From positions 1 to 55,978 of the IMG/VR virus record IMGVR_UViG_3300022413_000014: 55,978 bases of DNA. The stretch is one strand, 5' to 3'. Positions 1,968 to 55,554 of the stretch are shown in pieces. The notes under the pieces were generated by a model. That model ran no database searches. It saw only the letters and a list, made by a program, of their open reading frames with translations, and was not told the origin of the DNA. The position numbers and the translations under genes are program-made. Source of the stretch: a virus. Every line of letters begins with the position of its first letter. Within the stretch, counting starts at the first letter, position 1.

Positions 1968-1996
1968 TTTTTAATCACGGGTGACAAACTTGTCAA
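1968..1996 (-). promoter_or_regulatory. Leftward promoter overlapped by TGACAANNTTGTCA operator
   Basis: Reading leftward: TTGACA (1996-1991), 17-bp spacer, TAAAAA (1973-1968). The palindrome TGACAAACTTGTCA at 1982-1995 contains the -35 box, so a bound protein would exclude RNA polymerase. The same site covers the GTG start of the rightward gene at 1981. Confidence 0.65.
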
Positions 1997-2766: not shown

Positions 2767-4170
2767 TTAGCGCTCTTTGATTTCCCTAACAGCAGGCCCT
2801 CGAACAATTACCAGCAGACGCTCATCATCGCTACCGACATTCTCCGCCGGTCCATAGCGCGCGTCGGTCACCTCGAACCAGATTTCGGCCTTACTCTTGC
2901 CGCCACGTAGGCCAACCTCGACCTTGTGAATGGTAGCCAGCCAGGAGCATTCGCGCTTGATGCCGTCCGACCAGAGATTTTTGCCCTCCCGGTTTTGCTG
3001 CAGCGCGATCACTAGGATCAGGTCGTTGGATTGGATAAACGCAGACAGCTTTTGCGCGACCTGCTCATAGAACGCGGCCTCGTTCTGACGTTGGGCCTTG
3101 CCGGCGATCTTGGTGTAGTAGTCGATGAAGAATACGCGGGTGCCGTGGTCGATCATCGATCTGTTCATGCGAATCAACAGATCATCGATCGTGATGCCCG
3201 GCACGTGGTCGAACTTGGCGTGCTCGAAATAGGGGTTGGTAACCGCCCAGGCATCGAGCCGGGCCACCGCCAGATCAGCGTTGGCCTTGTCCTCCAGCCA
3301 GGCCAGCGGCGTGTTGGTGTCGCCACAGAACTCACGGGCGACCAGATCGGTGGGGGATTGCTCTAGCGAGAAGAAATGGGTTTTGACGCCCGAGATCAGC
3401 GCGCCACGCTGCACGCCCGACAGCACGGAGGTCTTGTTCGACTTGGGTGGCGCGTCAAAGCCGTAAATGCAGCCGGGACGAAGCCCGCCGCCGAGCGCCG
3501 CATCGAGGCAGGCGTAGCCGGTGGAGACCTTGGGCGACGACTCCAGTAGTCTTTCCTTGAGGTGGTTGATCACCGTCATGCCATCCCACGAGCGATCATG
3601 CGGTTCGGTGATCGAGATGTCTTCGATGCTCGAGGTGATACGGTGCGCGATGCCCTTCCATTCGGACGCCACCGTCAGGCTGGGGTCCATGGCGGCGTTC
3701 AAGCCTTCCTGGCAGATCGCGGCAAGGGCGCGGCGCTGGGCCAAATCGAAAATCAGACGCGCGTAATCCTGGGTGTTGAGGATGGTGATTGCCGCTTGGG
3801 CGAGGCCTGCGAGATAGCGTGATCCATTGACCTGGGCAAGGCGCTCATCGGTCTCGAAGGCCGATGCTAGGGTGACATGATCCACCAGGAGGCCGTCTTG
3901 ATGAGTCTTGAGCATGACCTCGAAAATCGACTGGTGGACCGGCTCGTAAAAATGTTCAGGCTTCAAAAACTCAGCGGCATCAGCGAGGGTGGAGTCGTTG
4001 ACCATGATCGCACCAAGCAACGCCTGCTCGGCTTCGAGATTGTGCGGTGGCGCTTGAAAACCGAACGGCAGCCGGCCGTACGCTTCGCTGTCGGATGGGG
4101 TGTCGACCGGCTCAACATGGATGAGTCCGGGTTCAGCGACTCGGTTGCCGCCCTTGGTCTCGTCAGCCAT
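2767..4170 (-). CDS. DnaB-like replicative DNA helicase
   Basis: 467 residues, the usual length for DnaB. Residues about 37-145 match the N-terminal helical domain (NLEAEQALLGAIM onward); residues about 215-467 match the RecA-like ATPase. The Walker B region is RVFFIDYYTKI, and ALQQNREGK sits where DnaB has its SQLNR finger. The Walker A loop is unusual: APPKSNKTS, with Asn in place of the invariant Gly before Lys-Thr. It would unwind DNA at the phage fork. The gene follows the 4199-5302 replication protein, the likely initiator or loader. ATG 4170 has GGAG upstream. Confidence 0.93.
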   Translation of the reverse strand: MADETKGGNRVAEPGLIHVEPVDTPSDSEAYGRLPFGFQAPPHNLEAEQALLGAIMVNDSTLADAAEFLKPEHFYEPVHQSIFEVMLKTHQDGLLVDHVTLASAFETDERLAQVNGSRYLAGLAQAAITILNTQDYARLIFDLAQRRALAAICQEGLNAAMDPSLTVASEWKGIAHRITSSIEDISITEPHDRSWDGMTVINHLKERLLESSPKVSTGYACLDAALGGGLRPGCIYGFDAPPKSNKTSVLSGVQRGALISGVKTHFFSLEQSPTDLVAREFCGDTNTPLAWLEDKANADLAVARLDAWAVTNPYFEHAKFDHVPGITIDDLLIRMNRSMIDHGTRVFFIDYYTKIAGKAQRQNEAAFYEQVAQKLSAFIQSNDLILVIALQQNREGKNLWSDGIKRECSWLATIHKVEVGLRGGKSKAEIWFEVTDARYGPAENVGSDDERLLVIVRGPAVREIKER

Positions 4171-4198: not shown

Positions 4199-5302
4199 TC
4201 AAACTGCCTCTTCGGGCATCTCGAAAATCATGGTCTTGGCGAAGCCGTCGCTTTTGCCAAACTTATCGCACTCGACCAGCTTGACGCCGCTGCCGGCATA
4301 GTTGGGATCAACGCGCCAGCCCTGGCCGACGGTCAAGTTCCGGCCCCTGAACGGGAAGCTACGCCCGATGAGATCAGGCGGGCCGAACGGGGACGGCCTC
4401 TCGGCAGGCTTGCCGGGGTTGGGTCCAGGCAGGTCATCGGACCAGCAGGCCTGGTTCAGCCAGGTCTGTGGGTGCTTGACGTAGCGGGCTTCGGTCTGGT
4501 TGTCCCTGACATGCGCCATGTAGCGCTTGAGACCGGCCTCCAGCTCGTCCGCCGTGGCCAGGTTTTTGTCGATGATGCGCTTGTAGCATTTTTCAGCGGC
4601 TCCCCTTCCGCGTTTCATGCCAGGCCCCCAGAGATCCCACCAGCTGGAAAAATCAGCGGATGGATTAGGCGGTGGGGGATCGGGCACAACGGCCACCGGC
4701 CGCAATGCCACCACGGTATCATCGGCATCCGGGTCCGTCACCCAGTTTGGAACGTCCTCGTGATCAGAATCACGCCCGCCGTCAGGTGGGCAATGGTCGG
4801 GGAACAGATCACCGTTGGCATGGCCTGAACAAGAGTCTTTTTCGTCTTTACCGTCTATACCGTTTAGATTCGTTTGCCCTTTGCTTGCCCTTCGCTTGCC
4901 CTTTACCGTGCCCTTTTTCCCGAACACCTCGTCTAAGTCTATGGAATAGATAGAGATATTGTGCCTCGTAGTTTGCCCTTTACTTTGCCCTTTTTCGTGC
5001 CCATTCACTGCCCATTTTTTGGTGCTATTTTTGCGGCTAATCATGCCGATATTTTGCAGCCTATTGAGCGCTGTTCTGATGACCTTGACGCTATAGCCGG
5101 TGGCCTGGTGAAGACGCGTGAGCGACACGCAAACGTCACCACGATCGAGCATGAGCATCTGGCCGCTATAGTGCACCGGACGCGGCTTGTGGGCGCACAG
5201 CGATAGCAGCTCAACCATCACATATTTTGTCGCTGGGGGCAGGTAAGAGCAGTCGCTCGGGAACATGTAGCGGGGCACTTGAAAATACGGCTGATCGGAC
5301 AT
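4199..5302 (-). CDS. Phage replication initiator/organiser-like protein
   Basis: 367 residues. The N-terminal third is a winged helix (start PRYMFPSD, then DRGDVCVSLTRLHQATGYS and a recognition helix around VKVIRTALNRLQ). It is followed by a low-complexity linker with repeated KGQ/KGK/KGT units (about residues 104-150), then an acidic/proline linker. The C-terminal part (WWDLWGPGMKRGRG to HPQTWLNQACW) matches a domain common at the end of phage replication proteins. The likely role is origin binding and helicase recruitment, inferred from domain type and position before the helicase. The N-terminus resembles the 5305-5658 protein. Confidence 0.75.
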   Translation of the reverse strand: MSDQPYFQVPRYMFPSDCSYLPPATKYVMVELLSLCAHKPRPVHYSGQMLMLDRGDVCVSLTRLHQATGYSVKVIRTALNRLQNIGMISRKNSTKKWAVNGHEKGQSKGQTTRHNISIYSIDLDEVFGKKGTVKGKRRASKGQTNLNGIDGKDEKDSCSGHANGDLFPDHCPPDGGRDSDHEDVPNWVTDPDADDTVVALRPVAVVPDPPPPNPSADFSSWWDLWGPGMKRGRGAAEKCYKRIIDKNLATADELEAGLKRYMAHVRDNQTEARYVKHPQTWLNQACWSDDLPGPNPGKPAERPSPFGPPDLIGRSFPFRGRNLTVGQGWRVDPNYAGSGVKLVECDKFGKSDGFAKTMIFEMPEEAV

Positions 5303-5304
5303 GG

Positions 5305-5658
5305 CTAATGCCCACCAACGTCATAGCCGAGGGCTTCGAGATCGATGCGATAGACCTTTTTATCACCGGGCTGGATGCCATCGGCAATGCACTCGATCGG
5401 GCCTTTTTCTTCAAGGTATTTGAGGATCGACCGAATGCGGCTCGGCTTATAGGTGGTGTGCGCGGTAAGCGCATCGTTGGACGTTAAAACGTCGCGACGC
5501 GTCAGTTCTATCGGACCACCGGGCGTTTCGACAAAACCAGGTTCATGGTCGTCGGCCATGTGGATCAGGGTCAGCAAAACAGGGATGCACCGCCCCTTGA
5601 TCGGCGATTCCTTCGTGAACAAAAAGCGGGGGGCGGAAAGGAATTGTGGGCTATGCAT
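5305..5658 (-). CDS. Winged-helix protein, paralogue of the replication protein N-terminus
   Basis: 117 residues from ATG 5658; the frame also opens at 5688 but the extra residues look non-coding. It shares the layout of the next gene: PRFLFTKES against PRYMFPSD near the start, then a hydrophobic helix, a Thr-Arg-Arg-Asp-Val turn and a recognition helix (SRIRSILKYLEEKG). It could bind the neighbouring inverted repeats at 5690-5791 and act in replication control. That role is inferred. Confidence 0.7.
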   Translation of the reverse strand: MHSPQFLSAPRFLFTKESPIKGRCIPVLLTLIHMADDHEPGFVETPGGPIELTRRDVLTSNDALTAHTTYKPSRIRSILKYLEEKGPIECIADGIQPGDKKVYRIDLEALGYDVGGH

Positions 5659-5689
5659 TTTCCGGCTCCGATCGCGGGGCCGAATCATT

Positions 5690-5815
5690 CAGCCCCTTGG
5701 TTGGCCTGATGGCAAGCTAGCGACGGTCACCAAACACAAAAATCCGTCAATAGCATCAGACCAACCAAGGGGCTGGTGATCGTGTTTGGTGATGTCGCAC
5801 CCCTGCCAAAGGGTG
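5690..5815. repeat. Two interleaved inverted repeats plus a hairpin
   Basis: Arm A CAGCCCCTTGGTTGG (5690-5704) pairs perfectly with 5761-5775 and extends by CTGAT/ATCAG (5706-5710 with 5755-5759) across one mismatch. Arm B CACCAAACAC (5728-5737) pairs perfectly with GTGTTTGGTG (5782-5791). The order is A, B, A', B', a pseudoknot topology. A smaller CACCC/GGGTG hairpin follows (5798-5802 with 5811-5815). This lies in a 245-bp gene-free stretch at the head of the replication operon: a candidate origin or structured leader. Confidence 0.75.
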
Positions 5816-5892: not shown

Positions 5893-5907
5893 TGACAGGT
5901 CTGTCAA
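5893..5907 (-). promoter_or_regulatory. Variant operator TGACAGGTCTGTCA at replication operon
   Basis: TGACAGGTCTGTCA (5893-5906) is palindromic and matches the outer bases of the genome-wide operator. Leftward it supplies a TTGACA -35 box (5907-5902), but the -10 is poor (TTAAGG or TTTAAG). It would control the replication genes to its left. Confidence 0.5.
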
Positions 5908-8623: not shown

Positions 8624-8651
8624 TTTGTACATTACGGGACAAGCTTGTCAA
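8624..8651 (-). promoter_or_regulatory. Leftward repressor promoter with operator
   Basis: TTGACA (8651-8646), 16-bp spacer, TACAAA (8629-8624) reading leftward. The palindrome GGACAAGCTTGTCA (8637-8650) contains the -35 box. The predicted transcript start is at or next to the ATG at 8617. Confidence 0.6.
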
Positions 8652-8677: not shown

Positions 8678-8705
8678 TTGACAAGGTTGTCAAGGGTAGT
8701 ATGAT
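8678..8705 (+). promoter_or_regulatory. Rightward promoter with operator
   Basis: TTGACA (8678-8683), 16-bp spacer, TATGAT (8700-8705). The palindrome TGACAAGGTTGTCA (8679-8692) overlaps the -35 box and spacer. This is a strong-looking sigma-70 promoter for the rightward recombination operon; the ribosome binding site GGAAGGA of gene 8726 follows directly. Confidence 0.75.
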
Positions 8706-11126: not shown

Positions 11127-11153
11127 CGTATGATGCCCATGACAAACATGTCA
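11107..11153 (+). promoter_or_regulatory. RecT promoter with downstream operator
   Basis: TTGAAG (11107-11112), 16-bp spacer, TATGAT (11129-11134). The palindrome TGACAAACATGTCA (11140-11153) sits just downstream, over the likely transcript start and up to the AGGAGAG ribosome binding site. The stretch TATGATGCCCATG is shared with the promoter at 8700. Confidence 0.6.
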
Positions 11154-29796: not shown

Positions 29797-32700
29797 CAAA
29801 AGTCCCCGAGCAAGATGCGCTCGGCAGCGATGCCCGCGCGGAATTCGACCGAGGCGTCAAGTTCGAGCACCTGGCTGGTCAGGCGGTCAGTGGTCGAGCG
29901 ATCAACGCCCTCGATGATGAAGACCTTGGTCAAACTGCCGCCTAGGCCTGCCGCGCTGACACCGAGACCACGGGAGGTTTGCGTGAGCGGCAGGATCGCT
30001 TCCGGCCCGGCTTCACCGGCAAGGCCGAGGTCAGCGGTGCCGAGCACATTGTCGACGCCGCCGATCAGGGTCGGGGACGACAGCGTACCACCGGTCCTGA
30101 ATTCCTTGCCATCGGCATCGGGGCCGGACAGGGACACCGGGCCGGTGATCACGCCACCCTCGGCGAACAGCCCGCCGATCTTCTTGCCGATGCTCTTGAT
30201 GCCACCGCCGACCGACTTGGCAATGCCGCCGATGGCGCTGCCGACGCTACCGACCGAGCTGGTGATGCCGCCGAGGATGCCACCGACCGTGCCGGCGGCA
30301 CTGTTAGCAATGCTGATCACGGAATCGAAAGCGCTGGAGGCGGCACTGACAATCCCGCCAAAAGCACTAGCGGCGATTCCGACCAGCGAGCCAAGCGCGC
30401 TGCCGATCGCGCCCACGGCAGACTGGGCAATGCTAACTATGGCGCTAAAGGCCGAGGACGCGGCCGAGACGATGCCGCTAAAGACGCTTTGCGCGGTGCT
30501 AAGAATGGCACTGAAGGCTGACGTGAACGCGCTCAAGAGGGTGCTGATGATCCCTTGCAGCGCGCTGAGCATGGCGGAGGCGGCGGAGATGATGCCGCTC
30601 ATCACGCTTTGCACCAGGCTCAAGATCGCGGTGAAGGCCGAGGTGAAGGCGCTCAGCAACGTGCTGATGATGCCCTGCAAGGCGCTGAGCATGGCGGAGG
30701 CGGCGGAGATGATACCCGTGAGCACCGTTTGCGCGATACTAAGCACCGCGCTGAAGGCAGCGGTGAACGCGCTCAGGATGGTCGAGGCGATGGCGCTGAG
30801 CACGTCCAGCATCACCGAGGCGGCAGCCTGGATGGCGCTAAATACCGCTGTGACCACCGTCTGGATGGCGCTGAACGCCGCCGAGAACACTTCGACGATC
30901 AGGCTAACCGACGCGGTCAAGGCCTCGACCAGCAGGCCCGCAGCCGCCTTGATGACGTCAAAGGCTACGGTCGCCACGGTCGAGATCAGGCTGAACGCGG
31001 CCGAGAAGATGTTGCCGATAACGCTGACGATCCCGACCAGGGCGTCGACCATAAATTCGGCGGCCGAGACCACGGCGTCAAAGGCGAATTCCGCGACGTC
31101 GCTGATGGTGCCGAACACGTCGACGCCGGCCAGCTCCAACACGCCAAGGACGGCGACCACACCGAGGATAGCCAGACCGATCGGGCCTAGGAAGGCGAGG
31201 AAGCTGCTGGCGGCCGCGCTAATGCCGCCAAAGCTGCTGATGCCGGTCGAGCCCAGGATGCCAAAGCCGGATGAGATGCCGGGGATCAGGCTGGTGATCG
31301 ATGTCATTGACTCGAACAGGCCGGAACCGCCCGAGAAAATATTGATGATGCCGGTGACCGCGCTGATGGCAGCGTCACCCAGTCCGGTAAACTCAAGGCC
31401 AAAGAAATTAAACACGCCTTCGGCGATGCGCTCGATCTCATCGAAGTTGAACTTAAAGAACGTGCGGAAGGCCTCAATAACACCGCCGGCTTTCTTGCCG
31501 AAGATGTCTTCGAGACTTATGCCGATACCATCGAGGACTTGAATAACGTCATCGACGAAGTTGCCAATTTTCTCACCACTTTCGCCGCTGAAGTCCTCGA
31601 TGATGGTCGGTGCGCGCTCACCGAAGACCACCTCGATTTCATTGGCGACGTCTTCAATGACGTCAGGCAGTTGCTCGAAGGACTCATTGGCGGTCTGGGC
31701 GAAGGCCGCGACCTCGCCGCCGGCAAAGGAGGCGGCGAAGCCGAGCTGCTGGAGGTTGTCGGCGGTTTCCTCAGCCGCGCCCGAGCTATCACCGAGGATG
31801 TCAGAAAGCTCACCACCCTCTTCGTTCAGCCCGCCGAGGCTATCGGCAGCGTCATCAGCGCCTTCACTGAGCGCGCCCAGGTTTTCGCCGGCTTCCTCGG
31901 CCGCCTCGCCAAGGCCGATGACCGACTTGACCGAGTCCGGCAGGAAGTCGAGTAGACCCTTGATGCTTTCGAGCGCCTTGCCAAAGGCGTTGGTGATGGT
32001 GTCACCGAACTCCAGCACCGGCTGGATCGCATCCCTGATGGCATCGGCAAAGCCTTCGACAGCGTCTACGGCCTTATCGAACAGGTCGCTAAAGGCCTCG
32101 ATCGCATCACCGACATCGACCAGCTCCCCGATGCTTTCAACGGCATCTCCGATCGATTCCGCGACCTCCTTGGCAAAGTCCACCAACGGATTGTCGGTAA
32201 ACAGACCGTTGAAGGTCGCGATGATGCCTTCGACCGCATCCAGCTCGCCGAACTTGGTGAGGACCTCACCGATCGAGGCGACGACGTCATCAACGAAGAC
32301 AGCGACGGGATTGTCATCAAATAGCCCGGCGAAGTTGTCGATGATCTGCTTGATGCCATCGAACTCGGTGAAGCCCTCGATGATATTGGCGATCGAAAGC
32401 AGGATCGATGCGCCGAATGCCTCTAATGGGTTGCCCTCGAATAGCCCTAGGAAGGCCTCGACAAAGCTGTCAGCGGCCGCCAGCTGGGAAATGACGTCGA
32501 TGACGTTGGAAACGGTCTCTAGAACGCCCTCACCAAAGCCGGCGATGATCTCGCCAGACGTTTCAAAGAGCCCACCGAAGGTGGCAAGAATCTGCTGGAC
32601 GCCGTCGAGCTGCTTAAAGTCCTCGACGATGCCGTTGAGCGTAGTCTTAACCTGGGACCCGAAACTGGTGAACGGCGTGGTGATCCCGAGAATGCCCGTC

Positions 32701-42140: not shown

Positions 42141-42154
42141 TGACAATCTTGTCA
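42141..42154. promoter_or_regulatory. Operator TGACAATCTTGTCA between divergent genes
   Basis: A copy of the genome-wide palindrome between the leftward membrane operon and the rightward winged-helix gene. Leftward it supplies TTGACA without a good -10; rightward a TTGTCA/TACAAA pair with an 18-bp gap is possible. It could control both directions. Confidence 0.55.
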
Positions 42155-43315: not shown

Positions 43316-43329
43316 AGACAAGATTGTCA
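43316..43329. promoter_or_regulatory. Operator AGACAAGATTGTCA without clear promoter
   Basis: A copy of the palindrome with one outer mismatch, in the gap before the 43355 gene stop. No good -10 is seen in either direction, so it may act as a roadblock or secondary site. Confidence 0.45.
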
Positions 43330-50054: not shown

Positions 50055-50083
50055 ATCATGATCTGTGCTGACAACGTTGTCAA
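50055..50083 (-). promoter_or_regulatory. Leftward promoter with perfect operator
   Basis: TTGACA (50083-50078), 17-bp spacer, CATGAT (50060-50055). TGACAACGTTGTCA (50069-50082) is a perfect palindrome over the -35 box. It points into the gene-free 49483-50079 gap, not directly at a gene. Confidence 0.6.
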
Positions 50084-53028: not shown

Positions 53029-53057
53029 AGTGTACGGACCTATGACAAGCTTGTCAA
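53029..53057 (-). promoter_or_regulatory. Leftward promoter with perfect operator
   Basis: TTGACA (53057-53052), 17-bp spacer, TACACT (53034-53029). TGACAAGCTTGTCA (53043-53056) is a perfect palindrome over the -35 box. The bases after the -10 match the 55526 promoter (TACACTTG.TT.ATGG). Confidence 0.75.
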
Positions 53058-55525: not shown

Positions 55526-55554
55526 AGTGTATGGATAAAAGACAAGCTTGTCAA
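55526..55554 (-). promoter_or_regulatory. Leftward promoter with operator
   Basis: TTGACA (55554-55549), 17-bp spacer, TACACT (55531-55526). AGACAAGCTTGTCA (55540-55553) overlaps the -35 box. The region just after the -10 matches the 53029 promoter. Confidence 0.75.

What the first reader, a model, noticed from the sequence alone, without database searches (positions are those of the whole stretch)
5690..5815. Interleaved 15-bp and 10-bp inverted repeats at the replication genes
Two perfect inverted repeats are arranged A-B-A'-B', with the longer extending past a mismatch, in a 245-bp gap at the head of the replication operon and next to two winged-helix genes. In RNA they form a pseudoknot topology; in DNA they could be initiator sites. 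No ORF explains them.
Basis: seen in the sequence. Interest (0 to 1): 0.72.

Follow-up and report, generated by a model that had tools for sequence, protein, structure and literature searches.

The report
Phage leader RNA switching replication genes
Just upstream of this phage's DNA-replication genes lies a folded RNA control element whose two interleaved stems probably cannot both form in one molecule; several other phages carry the same design in the same place with different letters, and it most likely acts as an RNA off-switch (immunity) for replication.

Summary
The repeats are real and larger than reported: arm A 5690-5711/5754-5775 (22 nt, 21 Watson-Crick plus one G.U on the minus strand) and arm B 5727-5737/5782-5792 (11 nt, perfect), interleaved. 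A is the longest inverted repeat of the window. Letters differ but pairing holds: 13 of 19 stem-A pairs change on both sides among seven of them. A U-rich tract follows stem A in nine of ten loci; the window lacks it. In the window, B'/B is predicted to fold first and A to displace it: alternatives, not a stable pseudoknot. This resembles the plan of P4 CI / P1 C4 / N15 antisense immunity RNAs, but Rfam's C4 model does not match. A likely origin (eight iterons) lies inside the initiator gene instead. Best reading: a C4/CI-like leader RNA that stops transcription of the replication operon. The structured leader is well supported; termination and trans-acting immunity are inferred.

The parts
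5893..5906 (.). palindrome TGACAGGTCTGTCA, likely phage-repressor operator; overlaps a TTGACA -35-like hexamer (5907-5902, minus strand) at the upstream edge of the leader gap
   Evidence: pattern TGACANNNNTGTCA with up to 1 mismatch: 11 sites in the window against 1.38 expected, 0 of 100 shuffles; contexts; no good -10 found
5782..5792 (-). B' arm (target-like segment, seqA-like) TCACCAAACAC
   Evidence: pairs with 5727-5737; extends to 13 pairs with one G.U
5794..5798 (-). GCGAC, pairs with GTCGC 5720-5724 and lengthens the B'/B helix in the nascent fold
5754..5775 (-). stem A, 5' arm on the coding strand
5744..5749 (-). inner hairpin C, 5' arm (UGACGG); its 17-nt loop carries B
5727..5737 (-). 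B arm GTGTTTGGTGA, exposed in the loop of the inner hairpin inside stem A
5721..5726 (-). inner hairpin C, 3' arm (CCGUCG)
5690..5711 (-). stem A, 3' arm on the coding strand
5666..5669 (-). GGAG, likely ribosome-binding site of the first gene downstream (ATG 5658-5656)
   Evidence: sequence
5305..5658 (-). 117-aa protein of unknown family, first gene after the element
4199..5302 (-). replication initiation protein (phrog_270)
   Evidence: E 3.9e-22
2767..4170 (-). DnaB-like replicative helicase
4875..5015 (+). eight TGCCC(T/A)T iteron-like repeats, two groups of four, 11-12 bp apart, in a G+C dip inside the initiator gene: candidate replication origin

Best explanation
The element is the structured 5' leader of the phage's replication transcript, made from the minus strand. 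As RNA polymerase passes, B' first pairs with B; when A' emerges, the 22-bp stem A forms and displaces that pairing. Stem A (with a U tract in most relatives) stops or processes the transcript before the replication genes. The released RNA, with B held open inside stem A, can then pair in trans with B' on new leaders and keep the operon off, as P4 CI RNA does with seqA. So it would keep a prophage's or a superinfecting sister phage's replication genes silent. Shown: interleaved complementarity, same place before replication genes in ten loci, compensatory change in stem A (in relatives), predicted mutually exclusive folds. Inferred: transcription, termination, the trans step and immunity.
For: Same B'-A-B-A' plan before the replication operon in BcepIL02, JC1, CSP3, BcepMigl, DC1 and a Caballeronia prophage, Bcep22, a prophage in genome G107 and a Manatee Spring phage. 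Pair counts on seven aligned elements: 98.1% of cells paired, 13 of 19 stem-A pairs and 2 of 5 P2 pairs changed on both sides, 0 of 500 shuffles as high, slid controls 33-45% paired. U-rich tail after stem A in 9 of 10 loci; in the Manatee phage stem A runs into a run of eight T and then the replication gene's ATG. Between JC1 and BcepIL02 the leader is wholly different but similarity resumes at 82% six bases after A': a swapped module, as expected of immunity specificity. Before A' is made, B'/B pairs have mean probability 1.00 (window), 0.99 (JC1), 0.95 (G107), 0.71 (Caballeronia), 0.67 (BcepMigl); stem A forms in the full-length fold of all ten. Same gross plan as Rfam C4 (17-bp stem enclosing two hairpins), which rings in P4, N15 and P1; P4 loop complementarity upstream and downstream was recovered. 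P4 mechanism read in passages of PMC4825925.
Against: No expression data. Rfam C4 does not match the window or the element of the five Lessievirus records or the Caballeronia element, nor Bcep22, G107 or the Manatee phage. The model built from BcepIL02-type elements does not match the window, JC1 or the Caballeronia element, so the window belongs by plan only, and no compensatory change could be shown within its own lineage. The window has no U tract after A' and no promoter match. In the BcepIL02 type the 7-nt B alone is not significant (reached in 0.18-0.51 of shuffles) and never varies; B'/B is improbable in the nascent folds of five of ten loci (0.17-0.30: BcepIL02, Bcep22, CSP3, DC1, Manatee). 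No downstream target like P4 seqC was found consistently. Other phages with related DUF2303 or replication proteins mostly lack the element.
Confidence: 0.55

Rival explanations
1. A purely cis-acting attenuator: B'/B is an antiterminator and A a terminator or blocking hairpin; the balance is set by transcription speed, a phage protein or an antitermination factor, and no free antisense RNA acts.
For: Mutually exclusive folds; U tract after A in 9 of 10 loci.
Against: Does not by itself explain why B is kept unpaired inside the finished stem A as in C4 (folds), or the swapped leader modules; B'/B is weak in the nascent folds of five loci.
Confidence: 0.28
2. Replication origin or initiator/regulator binding sites acting as DNA.
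For: Inverted repeats before replication genes; hairpins are strong on both strands.
Against: Iterons lie elsewhere; pair-preserving divergence of stem A with a 94.4% identical replication protein; G.U against A.C bias on the coding strand.
Confidence: 0.06
3. An RNase III processing site or simple terminator between two operons, with B/B' a by-product.
For: Long near-perfect stem; U tract in relatives.
Against: The B' match exceeds chance in the window (1 of 2000), Caballeronia (15 of 2000) and JC1 (40 of 2000); the layout of B' recurs.
Confidence: 0.09
4. Small mobile palindromic element or chance.
For: Terminal-repeat-like shape.
Against: Single copy in the window; same place in ten loci with unrelated letters.
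Confidence: 0.02

Closest known systems
C4 / P4 CI / N15 antisense immunity RNAs (Rfam RF01695)
   Same: Long closing stem enclosing inner hairpins, exposed segment complementary to an upstream target in the same leader, placed before replication or antirepressor genes (alpha in P4, ant in P1)
   Different: No match to the C4 model; stem is 17-22 near-perfect pairs; only an upstream target, no consistent downstream one; stem A itself is followed by a U tract in nine of ten loci
c4-a1b1 and isrK leader elements (RF03163, RF01394)
   Same: Upstream target region of C4 RNAs (c4-a1b1 matched in P1, isrK in P4 and N15)
   Different: No match in the elements here; B' is a short segment, in the BcepIL02 type the loop of a small hairpin
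Transcription attenuators with alternative antiterminator and terminator hairpins
   Same: Mutually exclusive helices, U tract in relatives
   Different: No leader peptide or ligand domain seen; the window lacks a U tract

Membership tests
C4 antisense RNA (Rfam RF01695) | Score above the curated cut-off of the covariance model | tested here: not met
   no match in the window or at the elements of five Lessievirus records and Caballeronia (E<=1); none in Bcep22, G107, Manatee; P4, N15, P1 positive
C4 antisense RNA (Rfam RF01695) | Closing stem enclosing inner hairpins | tested here: met
   folds; C4 consensus. The window has one inner hairpin instead of two
C4 antisense RNA (Rfam RF01695) | Exposed segment complementary to a target in the same leader | tested here: met
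   weak per locus in the BcepIL02 type
P4 CI-type immunity RNA | Targets both upstream (seqA) and downstream (seqC) | tested here: not met
   only the upstream target was found consistently
P4 CI-type immunity RNA | Stable processed RNA that acts in trans and ends transcription early | not testable with these tools
   needs RNA and reporter experiments
BcepIL02-type elements (model R1) | Match to the covariance model built here | tested here: not met
   window, JC1 and Caballeronia not matched; the five matched members are the training set; G107 matched at E 1.8e-11
Replication origin (iteron type) | Tandem initiator repeats with an A+T-rich stretch | tested here: not met
   none reported within the element; present at 4875-5015 in the initiator gene

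The most novel reading that the evidence does not exclude
A new family of phage immunity RNAs, separate from C4, in which one stem is both the terminator of the replication operon and the scaffold of a trans-acting antisense RNA; phages change immunity by swapping this roughly 100-nt leader module, and the family spans Lessieviruses, other prophages and this siphovirus.
Probability: 0.38. Interest if true: 0.75.

Novelty: new variant of a known kind. Interest (0 to 1): 0.6.

Why it matters
RNA-based phage immunity is known from a handful of cases (P4, P1/P7, N15). A structurally conserved, sequence-divergent counterpart before replication operons, not matched by Rfam, would mean such control is commoner than thought, and would give Bcep22-like phages, which are reported to form unstable lysogens except JC1 (passages of PMC9144972), a testable second immunity layer beside the protein repressor.

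Tried and rejected
DNA similarity of the region to phages: none. Exact stem-A pattern in viral and genome contigs: none. Relatives by neighbouring or structural proteins in viral contigs: none; L004 is a distant initiator and L005 a chance match in a tail-like protein. The B-pair pattern in viral contigs gave four stretches, none with the window's plan. DUF2303-bearing loci: of 16 loci scanned only the Caballeronia one showed a clear copy; I did not annotate the genes at the other long repeats there. Replication-protein homologues: 0 of 6 (L097-L102) and 0 of 4 (L121-L124) have it. Burkholderia genus DNA search: 28 of 65 genomes rang at E<=0.001; the matching 23-mer was read inside a conserved host gene in 16 of the 28 fetched loci, and the two loci that matched within gp19 instead (L063, L066) show no element and look like host DNA. 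R1 search of 299 genomes: 6 rang, only G107 credible; R2 search of 398: G107 and one weak match without the pairing.

The scan for interleaved repeats has background: 49 hits (A>=13, B>=7) in 2.24 Mb of shuffled sequence, 4 with A>=16, and real hits with A>=16 at other places in L017 and L019, L051, L056, L057, L058 and L107. It does not fire on the P4, N15 or P1 loci at A>=16, because C4 stems are less perfect; it is tuned to the present elements.

Mobile-element, plain-terminator and DNA-origin readings were considered and rejected for the reasons given under rivals.

Full report
The observation. The minus strand carries, from 5' to 3': B' (5792-5782), stem A 5' arm (5775-5754), an inner hairpin whose 17-nt loop holds B (5737-5727), and A' (5711-5690), then GGAG and the ATG at 5658. 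Arm A is 22 nt with 21 Watson-Crick pairs and one G.U; B is 11 nt, perfect. A is the longest inverted repeat in 56 kb (21 matched; next 15; shuffles 12-14). The whole folds about 6 standard deviations better than shuffles on either strand. B given A: 1 of 2000 shuffles. Rfam has no family for it.

Surroundings. The window is a virus record of IMG/VR with siphovirus-type genes (portal, capsid, tape measure). Downstream of the element on its strand lie a 117-aa protein of no known family, a phage initiator (phrog_270), a DnaB-like helicase and an HNH protein; upstream lie RusA and a DUF2303 protein; RecE and RecT genes are on the other strand. The early region resembles that of Burkholderia phage BcepIL02.

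Relatives. Near relatives of the window were not found. Distant ones were reached through DUF2303. In BcepIL02 the 213-bp gap before the replication operon holds the same plan with other letters, as do JC1, CSP3, BcepMigl and DC1, Bcep22 and a Caballeronia prophage ahead of an AntA-like gene (that name is recalled from the look of the sequence, not from a family search). A covariance model of the BcepIL02 type then found an independent member in G107 (E 1.8e-11) before a phage replication-like gene and a DnaC-like gene (names likewise from reading), and BLAST from that found a Manatee Spring phage. That makes ten loci with the window.

Pair conservation. On five Lessievirus elements 7 of 19 stem-A pairs change on both sides, on six sequences 11 of 19, on seven 13 of 19; 0 of 500 shuffles reach the covariation score in each, and slid controls fall to 32-46% paired. 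For five sequences the count of pairs changed on both sides was reached by 51 of 500 shuffles, so that set alone was not decisive on that measure. JC1, the Caballeronia element and the window are not in these alignments. The BcepIL02-type B/B' pair (TTGGCGG/CCGCCAA) is invariant in seven of seven and gives no covariation; support for B/B' comes from its different letters in JC1, Caballeronia and the window.

Strand. Exceptions in stem A are 6 G.U against 1 A.C on the coding strand over eight loci (the CSP3 and DC1 rows were entered without their bulge). The numbers are small. U-rich tails follow A' on the coding strand in nine of ten loci; the window's A' is followed by AATGATTCGG.

Alternatives, not a stable pseudoknot. 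In the window the nascent RNA up to A' pairs B' with B along 11 of 11 pairs, lengthened by GCGAC/GTCGC, at -40.9 kcal/mol; once A' is made stem A wins at -61. Six bases join B' to A, too few to span some 21 bp of stem (about 59 angstrom at 2.8 per pair against at most about 45-49; my estimate). Nascent B'/B probability in the other loci: 0.99, 0.95, 0.71, 0.67, and 0.17-0.30 in five. So a cis switch is strong in the window and JC1 and weak in several BcepIL02-type members, where pairing between two RNAs or two loops is more plausible.

What it works like. The P4 scheme, as stated in the passages I read of PMC4825925: CI RNA, processed from the leader, pairs with seqA and seqC and ends transcription before the replication genes. 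Passages of PMC12197685 describe c4 RNA of P1/P7. The C4 consensus is a 17-bp stem around two hairpins. The elements here share that gross plan and the upstream target, but not the sequence model, and have no consistent downstream target. I therefore say that it works like C4/CI, not that it is a member of C4.

Module swap. BcepIL02 and JC1 share 82% identity beginning 6 bases after A', through the next gene, while the leader before it differs. BcepIL02 and DC1 share B and the flanks and have 94.4% identical replication proteins, yet differ along stem A.

Control of the leader. The palindrome TGACAGGTCTGTCA sits at 5893-5906, at the upstream edge of the gap; TGACANNNNTGTCA occurs 7 times exactly and 11 times with up to one mismatch, against 1.38 expected, including beside the divergent early promoters (8637, 8679) and before recT (11140). 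At 8678 it overlaps a TTGACA-N16-TATGAT promoter. At 5907 the TTGACA is present but the -10 is poor, so a leader promoter there is a guess.

Origin. Eight TGCCC(T/A)T repeats, 11-12 bp apart in two groups of four, lie at 4875-5015 inside the initiator gene in a local G+C dip (45-49% against 59% overall). This is a better origin candidate than the element. It is a pattern match, not a tested origin.

In print. The JC1 paper (PMC9144972; passages by term search) has no 'antisense' or 'immunity'; its terminator table, seen in a passage, does not include the element; and it reports stable lysogeny as the first for the group. The CSP3 paper (PMC10269572; term search) has none of antisense, small RNA, noncoding, immunity or hairpin. 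Searches for Bcep22 with antisense RNA and Lessievirus with antisense found no paper in the held library. The library lacks most subscription journals; the founding Bcep22 paper was not seen (recalled only).

Verdict. Real, conserved in plan, most likely a C4/CI-like leader RNA controlling replication; mechanism unproven.

Noticed in passing
window 1982-1995, 5893-5906, 8637-8650, 8679-8692, 11140-11153, 32459-32472, 42141-42154, 43316-43329, 50069-50082, 53043-53056, 55540-55553: Palindromes TGACANNNNTGTCA (up to one mismatch), 11 against 1.38 expected: probably the operators of the phage repressor, some overlapping -35 hexamers
   Followed up: partly
window 4875-5015: Eight iteron-like TGCCC(T/A)T repeats in two groups of four inside the initiator gene: likely replication origin
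   Followed up: partly
L029 (G001:C99:49420-49509): A classical C4 antisense RNA above the Rfam cut-off in the same Caballeronia genome, on another contig than the element described
   Followed up: no
L052 19088-19224, L057 17671-17791, L058 2126-2298: Iteron-like direct and inverted repeats (TGGTCAGGG, TGTCTAGGG, TGTCACAGG) in DUF2303-bearing loci
   Followed up: no
L006, L018, L019, L020, L105 leader gaps: Dyads around a -10-like GGCACAAT or GGCATACT upstream of B' in the Lessievirus leaders, perhaps operator and promoter of the leader
   Followed up: no
L108 3120-3184 and L110 4451-4515: The same 10-nt inverted repeat CACCAAACAC/GTGTTTGGTG, with identical flanks, in two viral contigs, without a stem A
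   Followed up: no
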